DNA of 53,711 nucleotides. Origin: Akkermansiaceae bacterium. GTDB lineage: Bacteria; Verrucomicrobiota; Verrucomicrobiia; Verrucomicrobiales; Akkermansiaceae. Position numbers and translations under genes: made by a program. The notes under the pieces were generated by a model. The model had not been told where the DNA came from. It worked only from the letters and a program-made list of their open reading frames with translations, and searched no databases. The stretch is from the NCBI GenBank assembly GCA_903826205.1, contig CAIKDP010000294.1, positions 1 through 53,711 of the forward strand, read 5' to 3'. Shown piece by piece: positions 27,304 through 30,156 of the stretch (position 1 is its first letter; every line of letters begins with the position of its first letter).

Positions 27304-30156
27304 TCAGTTGGGAGGATTTGACTCCAGAATGGGCGGTGGGTCCAGCCATTTTCCATGGTCGCGGATGAGTTCGATGAGGCGGGCGACCGCCTCCGCTTCC
27401 GGGAGGTTGAATTGGACCGGGGTCTTGCCGACGTATAGGTTGATCTTGCCCGGCGCGCCGCCGACGTAGCCGAAATCCGCGTCGGCCATCTCGCCGGGGC
27501 CGTTGACGATGCAGCCCATGATGGCGATGCGCACACCCTTGAGGTGGCCGGTGGCGGCGCGGATTTTCTGGGTCGTGTGCTGGAGGTTGAAAAGGGTGCG
27601 CCCGCAACTCGGGCAGGCCACGTAGTCGGTTTTGAAAATGCGGGCACCCGCGGCTTGCAGGATGTTATAGGCCAGCCGCAGCGAGGCACCGGGGGCAGCT
27701 TCCTCCCTAACAAGAATGGCGTCGCCGATGCCATCGCAGAGCAGCGACCCAAGGTTGCAGGCGGCGCTGAGGGTCGCGGTGAGCGCAGTAGCTGCGTCAG
27801 TAGCTGCGGCTTCCAGCCGCAGGTCTTCCTTACCAGCCGCGAGAATGGCAGAGCGGGCAGTAGCTGCGGCTTCCAGCCGCAGGTCTTCCTCATCAGCCGC
27901 GAGAATGGCAGTACGGTCAGTAGCTGCGGCTTCCAGCCGCAGGTCCCCCCCATCTGCCCCTGCCCTTACCTCCCCCCATGAGTCACCATAGATCGATCCA
28001 CGCCAAGGCCAATCGACAAGCCCGGCTGACTCCGGGTTTTTCAACAAATAGCGCAGTTGATTCCGATAGTCTTCGCCATCGCGAATCAGATGATCATAGG
28101 ATTCCTTGTGCCAGAATGCGCCGGCAATGCCTAACAATTGATTCGCGGCATTGGCTGAGAAGGATTTGATTGAATGCAGGATTTCAGCAAGCGGATAGCC
28201 GTCAAACGGCTGGATCAAGAGATGCACATGATTGGGCATGATGCACCACGCGATCAAACCGTAGCGTTGCCCATCGAAGTGGCGCAGGGAGTCCAGTAAG
28301 ATTGAGGCCACAGGTTCATCACGCAAGTGGCAGTCTCCACTGCCGGTATCGAGAGCAGCACCGATGGAGGATTCATACAATACCGCAAGTTGCTTGGTCA
28401 AGTCAGCGAGCAGGTGCTGGCTTTCTGGCAGGTTGGAGGATGGTTCCGCGCGCTCAATTGCGGCTTCCAGTCGCGCCCGCTCGCGGCGGTAGGCCTCAAT
28501 CACCTCCACCGGAAGGGAGTTTGCCAGGCGGAAAGTCACGGCATACACTCCGCCTTGTTGGGTCCAGTGGGGGAGAAATGTGGCGTGTGATTTTTGTATA
28601 GGTTGCTTGGGATTGAGAAAGCTTTGCTGGCAGTCGTGATTCAATTGCGGCTGGAAGTCGATTGGGGATTGCGGCTGGAAGCCGCAACGACTGCCGTGAC
28701 GACTGCCGTGACGACTGCCGTGACGACCGTGCAACGTGTCCTTGAGCAGGATCGGATGGCGGGCCTCGGCGCGGGCGGCGAGCAGGCGGAAGGCGTGGAT
28801 GACTTCCATGCCGACGCCGTCGGCCACAGTGATGAGTTGCGGAGTGGCGGCCGCATTGAGGTCGGCCATGGCGGCCTCATCGCGCGGGTCGAGTTCCAAG
28901 ACGCCGGATTGTTCGAAAACCACCTCGGGTTTGAAATCGCCCATGCTCGGGATTTTGTGGGCCAGGGTGTTCCAACGGTCCTCGGTGGTGAACACGCGCA
29001 GCGTGTGGTCGCCGCCAAGTTGGTGACCCATCACGGTGATGACGGCGCTCTTGCGCCGCTCGTAGGAGAATGGATCGTAGGTGCCGCCGTCGAGCTTCCA
29101 GTGCGGAAGATAACTGGCGTCGGTCTTGATGACTTGGTCCCAGTTGATGTGAATGGAGGAGGCATCATCGGTTAGGGAACGGGTTAGAGAAGAGCGGCCG
29201 CGGGACGCGGCCGCCACGGCCTGCGGCGGGACGCCGCAGCCACTGCCACCGCTGTCACCGCTGCAGCTTCGTACCAACTCTTGGGCGACGGGGATTTCGT
29301 GGATCGAGTCTTCTGTTAGGGAGACACGGATGGTGTCGCCGATGCCGTCGGCAAGGAGCGAACCGATGCCGATGGCGCTCTTGATGCGGCCATCCTCGCC
29401 GTCGCCGGCTTCGGTGACGCCGAGGTGGAGCGGGTAATTCCAATCCGGGCCTTCGGCGGCGAGGCGGGCGGCGAGCAGGCGATAGGCCTCGATCATCACC
29501 TTCGGGTTGGAGGCTTTCATGGAGAAGACCAACTGGTGGTAGTCATGGTCGCGGGCGATGCGGGCGAATTCGAGTGCGCTCTCGACCATGCCCAGCGGGG
29601 TGTCGCCGTAGCGGTTCATGATGCGGTCGGAGAGCGACCCGTGATTGGTGCCGATGCGCATGGCGCGGCCGAGTTCCTTGCAGAGGCGGACCAGCGGGGT
29701 GAATTCCTCGCGGATGCGCTCGAGTTCCGCATGGTACTGGGCGGTGTCGTAATCACGGATGGCAAATTTTTTGCTATCCGAGTAATTGCCCGGGTTGACG
29801 CGGATTTTCTCGACCCATTTGGCGGCCTCCATGGCGGCGTCGGGTTTGAAATGGATATCGGCGACGAGCGGGACCTGGCAGCCGGCGGCGCGAACTTCGC
29901 GGGCGATGTGTTCGAGGTTGGCGGCGTAGGCTTTGGTTTGCGCGGTGATGCGGACGATTTCGCAGCCGGCCTCGGCGAGCGCGAGGGTTTCCGCGACGCA
30001 GGCGGCGGTGTCGCGGGTGTCCGAGGTGATCATGGATTGGACGCGGATCGGGTGCCAAGCCCCCAAGCCGAGGTGGCCGACCCGCACCTCGCGGGTCGGG
30101 CGGCGCGCGTAACTGAGGAGATCCTGGCAGTAGGGCATGGGCGCTGGTGGAGTCAT
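27304..30156 (-). CDS. ispG: IspG (4-hydroxy-3-methylbut-2-enyl-diphosphate synthase) with embedded RAYT transposase domain
   Basis: IspG reduces methylerythritol cyclodiphosphate to HMBPP in the MEP isoprenoid pathway. This is the large plant/Chlamydia form. Residues 1 to about 290 are the TIM-barrel domain (EVRVGHLGLGAW, VADIHFKPDAAMEAA, GDTPLGMVESALEFARIA). A middle insertion domain resumes at INWDQVIKTDASY and runs to RHPILLKDTLHG near residue 472. The Fe-S domain carries CPSCGRTLF near residue 848, the third Cys in IMGCIVNGPGE, and GGAPGKINLYVGKTP. Large IspGs are usually about 600-700 residues; this frame is 950 codons with no stop. The excess is a complete RAYT domain (about 523-727), flanking REP-derived peptide repeats, and a REP-derived linker near 295-333. 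The start may be the Met at 30156 or the one at 30138. Confidence 0.93.
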   Translation of the reverse strand: MTPPAPMPYCQDLLSYARRPTREVRVGHLGLGAWHPIRVQSMITSDTRDTAACVAETLALAEAGCEIVRITAQTKAYAANLEHIAREVRAAGCQVPLVADIHFKPDAAMEAAKWVEKIRVNPGNYSDSKKFAIRDYDTAQYHAELERIREEFTPLVRLCKELGRAMRIGTNHGSLSDRIMNRYGDTPLGMVESALEFARIARDHDYHQLVFSMKASNPKVMIEAYRLLAARLAAEGPDWNYPLHLGVTEAGDGEDGRIKSAIGIGSLLADGIGDTIRVSLTEDSIHEIPVAQELVRSCSGDSGGSGCGVPPQAVAAASRGRSSLTRSLTDDASSIHINWDQVIKTDASYLPHWKLDGGTYDPFSYERRKSAVITVMGHQLGGDHTLRVFTTEDRWNTLAHKIPSMGDFKPEVVFEQSGVLELDPRDEAAMADLNAAATPQLITVADGVGMEVIHAFRLLAARAEARHPILLKDTLHGRHGSRHGSRHGSRCGFQPQSPIDFQPQLNHDCQQSFLNPKQPIQKSHATFLPHWTQQGGVYAVTFRLANSLPVEVIEAYRRERARLEAAIERAEPSSNLPESQHLLADLTKQLAVLYESSIGAALDTGSGDCHLRDEPVASILLDSLRHFDGQRYGLIAWCIMPNHVHLLIQPFDGYPLAEILHSIKSFSANAANQLLGIAGAFWHKESYDHLIRDGEDYRNQLRYLLKNPESAGLVDWPWRGSIYGDSWGEVRAGADGGDLRLEAAATDRTAILAADEEDLRLEAAATARSAILAAGKEDLRLEAAATDAATALTATLSAACNLGSLLCDGIGDAILVREEAAPGASLRLAYNILQAAGARIFKTDYVACPSCGRTLFNLQHTTQKIRAATGHLKGVRIAIMGCIVNGPGEMADADFGYVGGAPGKINLYVGKTPVQFNLPEAEAVARLIELIRDHGKWLDPPPILESNPPN
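27798..27946 (+). repeat. Three 60-bp REP repeats inside ispG
   Basis: Three copies with an exact 60-base period, the last partial. Each carries the hairpin GCGGCTTCCAGCCGC. As 60 is a multiple of three, each unit adds 20 codons on the minus strand, read as DLRLEAAAT plus a variable half (RTAILAADEE, RSAILAAGKE). Confidence 0.92.
27975..28585 (-). mobile_element. Complete RAYT (Y1/HUH) transposase domain in frame within ispG
   Basis: About 205 codons encode a full REP-associated tyrosine transposase: FLPHWTQQGGVYAVTFRLAN at its start, DSLRHFDGQRYGLIAWCIMP, the HUH motif in MPNHVHLLIQPFDGYPL, ILHSIKSFSANAANQLLG, then FWHKESYDHLIRDGEDY with the conserved Tyr and RYLLKNPESAGLVDWPW. No frameshift or stop is visible. 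It has no obvious start Met of its own before MPNHVH, so it would be made only as part of the IspG polypeptide unless a GTG/TTG is used. REP hairpins flank it in opposite orientation, as in typical RAYT-REP units. Confidence 0.9.
28640..28740 (-). repeat. REP hairpins and 12-bp tandem repeat on other side of embedded RAYT
   Basis: Two REP copies occur here, one degenerate (GCGGCTGGAAGTCG) and one perfect (GCGGCTGGAAGCCGC), in the opposite orientation to the 60-bp repeats on the other side. Next to them the 12-mer ACGACTGCCGTG is repeated three times, with a truncated fourth. The 12-mer is read as the tandem peptide GSRH in the ispG frame. Confidence 0.9.
29160..29280. repeat. REP-like hairpin pair, family C, second in-frame insertion in ispG
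   Basis: Two perfect hairpins, stem GCGGCCGC at 29194-29214 and stem CTGCGGC at 29221-29239, both with the loop GGGAC, lie six bases apart. They fall in ispG where the frame reads the low-complexity CGVPPQAVAAASRGRSS between the barrel and the middle domain. Two GTTAG motifs adjoin. Confidence 0.85.

What the first reader, a model, noticed from the sequence alone, without database searches (positions are those of the whole stretch)
27304..30156. ispG with an intact RAYT transposase domain and REP repeats embedded in one continuous reading frame
The frame runs 950 codons without a stop. It reads as the IspG barrel, the middle domain, a full HUH-family RAYT of about 205 residues, then the Fe-S domain with CPSC and the GCIVNGPGE Cys. 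The insertion point lies between LLKDTLHG and ACNLGSLLCDG, a surface linker in large IspGs. RAYTs normally are separate genes beside REPs. Here a selfish element sits in frame inside a normally essential gene, so either the host tolerates it as a new domain, it is spliced out of the protein by processing, or the fusion has gained function. I know of no described IspG-transposase fusion.
Basis: partly seen in the sequence, partly recalled or inferred. Interest (0 to 1): 0.93.

Follow-up and report, generated by a model that had tools for sequence, protein, structure and literature searches.

The report
Transposase nested in-frame in essential enzyme
In this bacterium and many relatives a small DNA-cutting transposase sits, without its own stop and mostly without its own start, inside the coding frame of core enzymes such as IspG, methionine synthase and tRNA synthetases, and at one well-studied site it is swapped between species much as inteins are, but with no sign of splicing.

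Summary
The minus-strand ORF 30156-27304 (950 aa) is the only ispG found in a 97.7%-complete genome and holds a complete RAYT (REP-associated HUH transposase) between the middle and Fe-S domains, bordered by inverted REP hairpins. It is not a one-off. Of 68 same-genus ispG genes that could be read, 35 carry a RAYT at another linker (site A); the window keeps a decayed RAYT remnant there. Related RAYTs lie in-frame in metH (two sites), leuS, carB, alaS and a TPR gene, several of these also in other families of the order and in single-contig genomes. RAYTs cluster by insertion site, yet at ispG site A they do not follow the host tree (Spearman 0.08). Closely related species carry different REP-RAYT cassettes, swapped at or within about 30 nt of the REP ends. 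His-x-His is kept in 98/98 and Tyr in 97/98, dN/dS is about 0.13-0.30, ATG starts are mostly gone, and in-frame deletion scars show the domain is dispensable. Best reading: RAYT cassettes living as translated passengers in linkers of core enzymes, intein-like without splicing. RAYT-catalysed movement is inferred, not shown. Ten literature searches found no description.

The parts
27304..30156 (-). ispG ORF with embedded RAYT, 950 aa
   Evidence: only ispG found in the genome
29269..30156 (-). IspG barrel domain, aa 1-296
29083..29268 (-). site A linker, aa 297-358: two 25-nt repeats that read as REP-like palindromes (29197-29221, 29223-29247) plus a decayed RAYT
   Evidence: stretch LTED..DPFSYE is 91 aa here against 43-60 aa in the cassette-free relatives printed
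29083..29157 (-). RAYT N-terminal remnant (SIHINWDQVIKTDASYLPHWKLDGG, aa 334-358), scar of a lost site-A RAYT
   Evidence: by eye against the N-termini of intact site-A RAYTs in G061, G047 and others
28729..29082 (-). IspG middle domain, aa 359-476
27784..28728 (-). site B insert (945 nt, aa 477-791): REP-RAYT-REP cassette, open only in the RAYT frame
   Evidence: ILLKDT..LCDG is 341 aa here against 33-43 aa in relatives without insert or scar printed
28669..28691 (-). left REP: GTCG foot + perfect 8-bp hairpin
27991..28611 (-). RAYT domain, aa 516-722; HUH at aa 643-645 (28222-28230), catalytic Tyr aa 703 (28048-28050)
27800..27822 (+). right REP copy 1 (GTAG + 8-bp hairpin), inverted relative to the left REP
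27860..27882 (+). right REP copy 2, in 60-nt tandem units
27920..27942 (+). right REP copy 3, nearest the RAYT end
27304..27783 (-). IspG Fe-S domain, aa 792-950, with CPSC and GCIVNGPGE

Best explanation
The window's ispG is one host of a lineage of REPtron cassettes (REP hairpin - RAYT - inverted REP) that live as translated, in-frame inserts in flexible linkers of core enzymes. The cassette has no stop codon, mostly no ATG start, and a length divisible by three, so the enzyme is made with an extra HUH-nuclease domain, predicted to fold on its own between disordered REP-encoded linkers. SHOWN by sequence: in-frame anatomy, recurrence at the same few sites in many species, clustering of RAYTs by site, incongruence with the host gene at ispG site A, whole-cassette swaps with breakpoints at or close to the REP ends, retention of catalytic residues, purifying selection, and in-frame loss with scars. 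INFERRED: that the host transcript and ribosome express the RAYT as part of the enzyme; that the RAYT cuts single-stranded REP ends (as E. coli TnpA-REP does in vitro) and so promotes seamless excision or copying of the cassette into the same linker of a cassette-free or rival gene, with homologous flanks aiding repair; and that residence in an essential gene protects the cassette because only in-frame deletions of it are survivable.
For: Single ispG found, IspH also present; the own genome also holds RAYTs inside metH and inside its only alaS. 70 RAYT matches at E<=1e-38 in 47 of 73 genus genomes; 68 of 70 lie in stop-to-stop frames of at least 425 aa and for all 68 a host was recognised from the flanks: ispG A/B 36, metH site 1 23, metH site 2 4, leuS 4, TPR 1; 20 further long-frame cases from other genera and families show the same sites. 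Tree: 98 rows, 10 label changes (least possible 10) against 55.0 shuffled; with other families 117 rows, 13 against 67.0. ispG-A presence: 35 yes, 33 no, 1 unknown; 20 changes against 23.2 shuffled, 55 of 500 shuffles as low. RAYT against host distances: Spearman 0.08, p 0.07, same nearest neighbour 7 of 33. Cassette swaps in G040/G085 and G012/G010. metH G016/G014: RAYT 100% over 576 nt, dS 0.000, against host dS 1.45. His-x-His 98/98, Tyr 97/98; Met within 35 aa upstream of the core in 12 of 76 embedded against 17 of 18 labelled stand-alone. dN/dS medians 0.30 (97 usable of 528 ispG-A pairs) and 0.21 (15 of 300 metH1 pairs); window/G061 site B 0.13. Scars. AF2: RAYT residues 531-720 at pLDDT 88-97, junctions under 50; Foldseek 4er8 (RAYT with REP) E 1.4e-6.
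Against: No direct evidence of transposition or of protein. Same-site spread could be ordinary homologous recombination of host genes. Most same-site pairs are old: RAYT dS is below host dS in only 32 of 263 ispG-A, 13 of 91 metH1, 0 of 11 leuS and 0 of 1 metH2 pairs, and at site B the window/G061 RAYT dS (0.79) exceeds the host domains' dS (0.35-0.44). In metH G016/G014 the identical tract runs past the REPs into the host, about 20 nt upstream and 40 nt downstream, which fits recombination as well as homing. The near-absence of stand-alone relatives depends on the threshold: two stand-alone-length genus copies (G039, G063) lie just below it, and in the order 33 of 94 matches at E<=1e-36 are in frames of 212-313 aa. 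All 4 metH2 copies and one metH1 copy lack the Asn-Pro after the Tyr, and one ispG-A copy has lost the Tyr. GTG/TTG codons occur upstream of many embedded RAYTs, so internal initiation is not excluded. G059 has ispG barrel and RAYT in different frames. The AF2 model has pTM 0.44 from 37 sequences, and part of the barrel is poorly modelled.
Confidence: 0.75

Rival explanations
1. Passive passengers: the RAYTs no longer move by themselves. Cassettes spread only by homologous recombination of conserved host genes, and selection on the RAYT is for folding without harming the enzyme.
For: Clustering by site with few jumps between sites; the identical tract in metH G016/G014 extends into host flanks; most same-site pairs are old.
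Against: Catalytic His, His and Tyr are kept in 97 of 98 RAYTs, more than foldability needs; swap breakpoints fall at or near the REP ends; presence turns over nearly at random.
Confidence: 0.25
2. Domestication: the RAYT domain gives the host enzyme a useful new property, for example DNA-linked regulation.
For: Purifying selection on the RAYT; presence in core enzymes.
Against: Unrelated enzymes carry it; sister species lack it; G075, G018, G079 and the window's own site A lost it by in-frame deletion with IspG kept.
Confidence: 0.1
3. Two products: the RAYT is made separately by internal initiation, or the polypeptide is cut in the disordered linkers, so IspG works as fragments.
For: Junctions predicted disordered; GTG/TTG codons upstream of many RAYTs.
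Against: No ATG in the 35 codons before the core in 64 of 76 embedded copies against 1 of 18 labelled stand-alone; no stop between RAYT and host sequence in the frames read.
Confidence: 0.15
4. Artefact: chimeric assembly or a pseudogene.
For: The window is from a 469-contig draft genome; G059 has a broken frame.
Against: Only ispG in a 97.7%-complete genome; same insertion point in G061; inserts in single-contig genomes G004 (metH), G039 and G192 (ispG); host dN/dS about 0.08.
Confidence: 0.02
5. An intein-like element removed by protein splicing.
For: In-frame, core genes, clustering by insertion site.
Against: No splicing domain in the Pfam scan; flanking residues are REP-encoded and vary between species.
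Confidence: 0.02

Closest known systems
RAYT / TnpA-REP and REPtrons (IS200/IS605-like Y1 HUH transposases; e.g. PDB 4er8)
   Same: HUH and Tyr motifs, sequence and fold match to 4er8, flanking GTAG-type hairpins in inverted order, REP copies across the genome.
   Different: Not a separate gene: no stop, mostly no ATG, translated inside a core enzyme at recurrent sites. A survey of this superfamily discarded a few unexpectedly long members as gene fusions or annotation errors (PMC6006769, passage seen).
Intragenic REPs (Di Nocera et al. 2013, PMC3733652) and Rickettsia palindromic elements
   Same: Palindromes inserted in-frame in protein genes, including those of O. terrae (Verrucomicrobia) and, in other species, tRNA synthetases.
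   Different: There the inserts are short (20 to 82 aa); the two sections read whole (15 and 16) mention no RAYT gene inside an ORF. Here the whole transposase is carried, clusters by site and is exchanged between species.
Inteins with homing endonucleases (recalled)
   Same: In-frame in core enzymes, one allele family per insertion site, patchy, laterally exchanged, carrying a DNA-cutting domain.
   Different: No splicing domain found; REP hairpin ends; the insert apparently stays in the protein; decays by in-frame scars.
Large-form IspG (NCBIfam NF002534)
   Same: Barrel, middle domain, Fe-S domain (the taxonomic spread of this form is recalled).
   Different: Carries the extra RAYT; the score is below that model's cut-off (566 against 886 bits).

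Membership tests
RAYT / REP-associated tyrosine transposase | HUH motif and downstream catalytic Tyr | tested here: met
   HVH aa 643-645, Tyr 703; 98/98 and 97/98 across the aligned RAYTs
RAYT / REP-associated tyrosine transposase | Profile match above curated cut-off | tested here: inconclusive
   Pfam Y1_Tnp 25 of 23 bits met; NCBIfam NF047646 65.2 of 80 not met
RAYT / REP-associated tyrosine transposase | Flanked by REPs with GTAG-type foot | tested here: met
   right side GTAG, left side GTCG, both with a perfect 8-bp stem
RAYT / REP-associated tyrosine transposase | Separate gene with own start and stop | tested here: not met
   no stop until the ispG stop; no ATG (one TTG) in the 35 codons before the core
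RAYT / REP-associated tyrosine transposase | Cleaves single-stranded REP | not testable with these tools
   needs purified protein
GTAG REP element | GTAG foot, palindrome, many copies | tested here: met
   perfect 8-bp stem, z -5.6; 95 places at up to 1 mismatch for the 20-base hairpin, 0 in the reversed control
IspG (GcpE) | Profile above cut-off with Fe-S Cys residues | tested here: met
   PF04551 421.1 bits, TIGR00612 468.5 bits (cut-off 280.25); CPSC and GCIVNGPGE (that these are the Fe-S ligands is recalled)
Intein | In-frame, site-specific allele families in core genes | tested here: met
Intein | Self-splicing (Hint) domain | tested here: not met
   Pfam lists only GcpE and Y1_Tnp at E<=0.001
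Intein | Insert removed from the mature protein | not testable with these tools
   needs protein analysis
Rickettsia palindromic element | Palindrome translated in-frame in protein genes | tested here: met
   REP-encoded GFQPQ / LRLEAAAT stretches inside the ORF; a likeness of kind only
Rickettsia palindromic element | Sequence relationship to Rickettsia RPEs | not tested
   no RPE sequence was fetched

The most novel reading that the evidence does not exclude
A new class of mobile element: a splicing-free counterpart of inteins. Stop-less, mostly start-less RAYT cassettes are expressed as extra domains of essential enzymes, home into the matching linker of other strains through HUH-nuclease cutting at REP hairpins, and use the essential gene as shelter across an order of bacteria.
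Probability: 0.45. Interest if true: 0.95.

Novelty: new variant of a known kind. Interest (0 to 1): 0.88.

Why it matters
RAYTs are generally treated as separate, domesticated genes whose movement has hardly been seen (recalled, apart from the word 'domesticated' in the abstract listing of PMC8266576). Here a RAYT lineage, in the set sampled, sits inside core enzymes at shared sites, with clear lateral exchange and loss. It ties REPs found in coding sequence to a carrier, gives a natural experiment on how much foreign domain essential enzymes tolerate, offers comparative signs of RAYT/REP movement, and warns annotators who discard 'too long' proteins as fusions or errors.

Tried and rejected
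Second ispG or misassembly: rejected. Splicing: no domain. Vertical inheritance of one ancient fusion at ispG site A: rejected by near-random presence and lack of correlation with the host tree, although deep site-specific clades exist. RAYT as a neutral, decaying linker: dN/dS well below 1 and catalytic residues kept. Translation in another frame or strand: of 78 RAYT cores, 75 are open in one frame of six only and 3 in two. Literature: ten searches ran; nothing found on RAYT genes inside other ORFs; most subscription papers and preprints are not in that library. PMC3733652: abstract, sections 15 and 16 and passages seen. PMC6006769: passages and section 13. PMC8266576: passages only. All other papers: search listing only. 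Work on Rickettsia elements (beyond what PMC3733652 says), intein biology and the roles of IspG residues are recalled.

Limits of counts. One search left out rows with under 140 residues of RAYT covered (except alaS) and one search left out alaS. 14 labels given by script were corrected by me after reading the flanks. The label 'stand-alone' was given by locus number; one of the 18 (L313) lies in a 565-aa frame, is the one without an upstream Met, and may itself be embedded. In one search the start analysis found the core motif in 76 of the embedded rows with at least 140 residues covered; a few without it dropped out. In one search, G059 counts as 'present' from a RAYT in another frame and G081 from a RAYT on another contig; G046 is unknown; G018 counts as absent because only a remnant is left. 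G023, G024, G042 and G086 gave no barrel match. The host figure for the ispG-B pair was wrongly framed (it covered site A) and is replaced. The scan (288 genomes drawn from a larger group) scored at most 10 candidates per genome, so its 69 of 288 is a lower bound; I read 20 of its 94 matches, chosen for long frames. Host names for metH, leuS, carB and TPR rest on recognised flanking motifs, not on a family scan; alaS was scanned. All trees are 'quick' trees, and the distances behind the Spearman value are not independent.
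Full report
WHAT IS THERE. The frame is real and lies on the minus strand, 30156 down to 27304, 950 aa with an ATG start. It reads IspG barrel, site A linker, middle domain, site B insert with a RAYT, Fe-S domain. It is the only ispG found in the 5.57-Mb, 469-contig, 97.7%-complete genome, which also has IspH, so this gene presumably works. The 945-nt insert at site B is open only in the RAYT's own frame. It is bordered by inverted REPs: a GTCG-footed hairpin on the left and three GTAG-footed hairpins in 60-nt units on the right, each a perfect 8-bp stem with a 3-nt loop. 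The 20-base right-hand hairpin occurs at 95 places in the genome at up to one mismatch, with none in the reversed-pattern control.

A SECOND, DEAD COPY. At site A, between barrel and middle domain, the window's linker stretch is 91 aa against 43-60 aa in the cassette-free relatives printed. The extra part is two REP-like palindromes followed by SIHINWDQVIKTDASYLPHWKLDGG, which by eye is the N-terminus of the RAYTs that sit intact at site A in relatives. The window's ancestor thus very probably had a site-A RAYT and lost it by an in-frame deletion.

HOW COMMON. Of 73 same-genus genomes, 69 have an ispG barrel match. Site A holds a RAYT in 35, lacks one in 33 and is unreadable in 1 of those 69. 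Site B holds one in the window and in G061, which carries RAYTs at both sites and whose site-B copy is 81% identical. With the window's RAYT as query, 70 matches at E<=1e-38 fall in 47 of 73 genomes; 68 of 70 lie in open frames of at least 425 aa and the two of G070 are of stand-alone length. Reading the flanks puts the 68 in ispG (36), metH site 1 (23), metH site 2 (4), leuS (4) and a TPR protein (1); G073 and G074 have both metH sites filled. Weaker matches add more leuS and carB copies. The own genome has a RAYT in metH and a distant one inside its only alaS. The exclusiveness depends on the threshold: at E<=1e-36 over 288 genomes of the order there are 94 matches in 69 genomes and 26 of 50 genera, 61 in frames of at least 443 aa and 33 in frames of 212-313 aa, among them genus members G039 and G063. 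Twenty of the long-frame ones from other genera and families, read in full, show the same sites again: ispG A and B, metH 1 and 2, leuS, TPR. Single-contig genomes G004 (metH), G039 and G192 (ispG) argue against a general assembly artefact.

HOW THEY ARE RELATED. The RAYT tree sorts by insertion site: 98 rows, 10 label changes, the least possible, against 55.0 in shuffles; with other families added, 117 rows, 13 against 67.0. The clade that holds the ispG, metH and TPR copies (67 rows, support 96) has no stand-alone member in that set. Within ispG site A, however, the RAYTs ignore their hosts: presence needs 20 changes on the host tree, hardly fewer than shuffled (23.2; 55 of 500 shuffles as low), RAYT and host distances are uncorrelated (Spearman 0.08, p 0.07), and 7 of 33 share a nearest neighbour. 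The closest host pair, G001/G010, carries RAYTs 1.6 changes per site apart. In G012/G010 and G040/G085 the host DNA is nearly identical up to, or to within about 30 nt of, the REP ends, and the cassette between, REPs included, is of a different family. Conversely, in metH of G016/G014 the RAYT is 100% identical over 576 nt (dS 0.000) while the host gene has dS 1.45. Among same-site pairs with RAYT identity of at least 86%, the RAYT exceeds both host flanks in 4 of 4 metH1 pairs; in ispG-A it exceeds the upstream flank in 13 of 16 pairs and the downstream flank in all 14 measured. Against this, most same-site pairs are old: RAYT dS is below host dS in 32 of 263 ispG-A and 13 of 91 metH1 pairs, and at site B the window/G061 RAYT dS (0.79) exceeds that of the host domains (0.35-0.44). 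G039/G070 and G054/G063 are sister pairs with and without the site-A insert, differing in this stretch by 741 and 777 nt, both multiples of 3.

STATE OF THE DOMAIN. Both His of HUH are present in 98 of 98 RAYTs and the Tyr in 97 of 98. dN/dS medians are 0.30 (97 usable of 528 ispG-A pairs) and 0.21 (15 of 300 metH1 pairs); window against G061 at site B is about 0.13 (dN 0.101, dS 0.788). An ATG in the 35 codons before the core is present in 17 of 18 rows labelled stand-alone but in 12 of 76 embedded ones. AlphaFold2 on the 950-aa protein with 37 sequences gives aa 531-720 pLDDT 88-97 per 10-residue block and the junctions under 50, with pTM 0.44, so domain placement is open. Foldseek matches IspG structures and 4er8, RAYT bound to a REP hairpin (E 1.4e-6).

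LOSS. In the window's eight-member clade of the host tree, read by eye, site A is intact in G061, G047 and G072, keeps an N-terminal remnant in G000 and G079, a C-terminal remnant in G075 and G018, and REP only in G048. Site B is intact in G000 and G061, a C-terminal remnant in G075, and without RAYT traces in the other five. All eight frames stay open. The RAYT is therefore dispensable to IspG. G059, outside this clade, is the one case seen where barrel and RAYT are in different frames.

READING. The simplest account is a lineage of REP-RAYT cassettes that became translatable in-frame inserts, live in linkers of core enzymes, spread sideways into the same sites and decay by in-frame deletion. 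That the RAYT itself drives the movement is inferred from its kept active site, from breakpoints at or near the REPs, and from the published single-strand REP cleavage by E. coli TnpA-REP (PMC8266576, passages). Homologous recombination alone remains a serious rival; in metH of G016/G014 the identical tract extends about 20 nt upstream and 40 nt downstream of the REPs into the host gene. In-frame REPs in ORFs are known, including in O. terrae (PMC3733652), and REPs inserted in-frame inside tnpA-REP genes are known (PMC6006769). I found no account of RAYT genes inside other ORFs in ten searches.

Noticed in passing
window 24776-24909, 30247-30380 and near 51607-51710: A 134-nt intergenic repeat (two copies, 90% identical) with a GACGACATTCTTGTCGTCG palindrome; 61 places in the genome at up to 3 mismatches and none in the reversed control. 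It resembles the CGTC-tagged repeats, which PMC3733652 lists for five phyla without Verrucomicrobia (passage).
   Followed up: partly
L223 (G000:C439:13000-20500): A distant RAYT sits in-frame inside the genome's only alaS, flanked by repeated peptides.
   Followed up: partly
L279 (G073) and L284 (G074): metH with two RAYTs at two sites in one open frame of 1452 and 1425 aa.
   Followed up: partly
L195 (G059): ispG barrel and its site-A RAYT are in different frames; an assembly error or a broken gene.
   Followed up: partly
L303 (G025): A related RAYT lies in a 1622-aa frame that by eye looks like a restriction-modification enzyme; host not checked.
   Followed up: no
window 27015-27953: Minus-strand frame just after ispG whose C-terminal part reads like ClpS (recalled; not scanned).
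   Followed up: no
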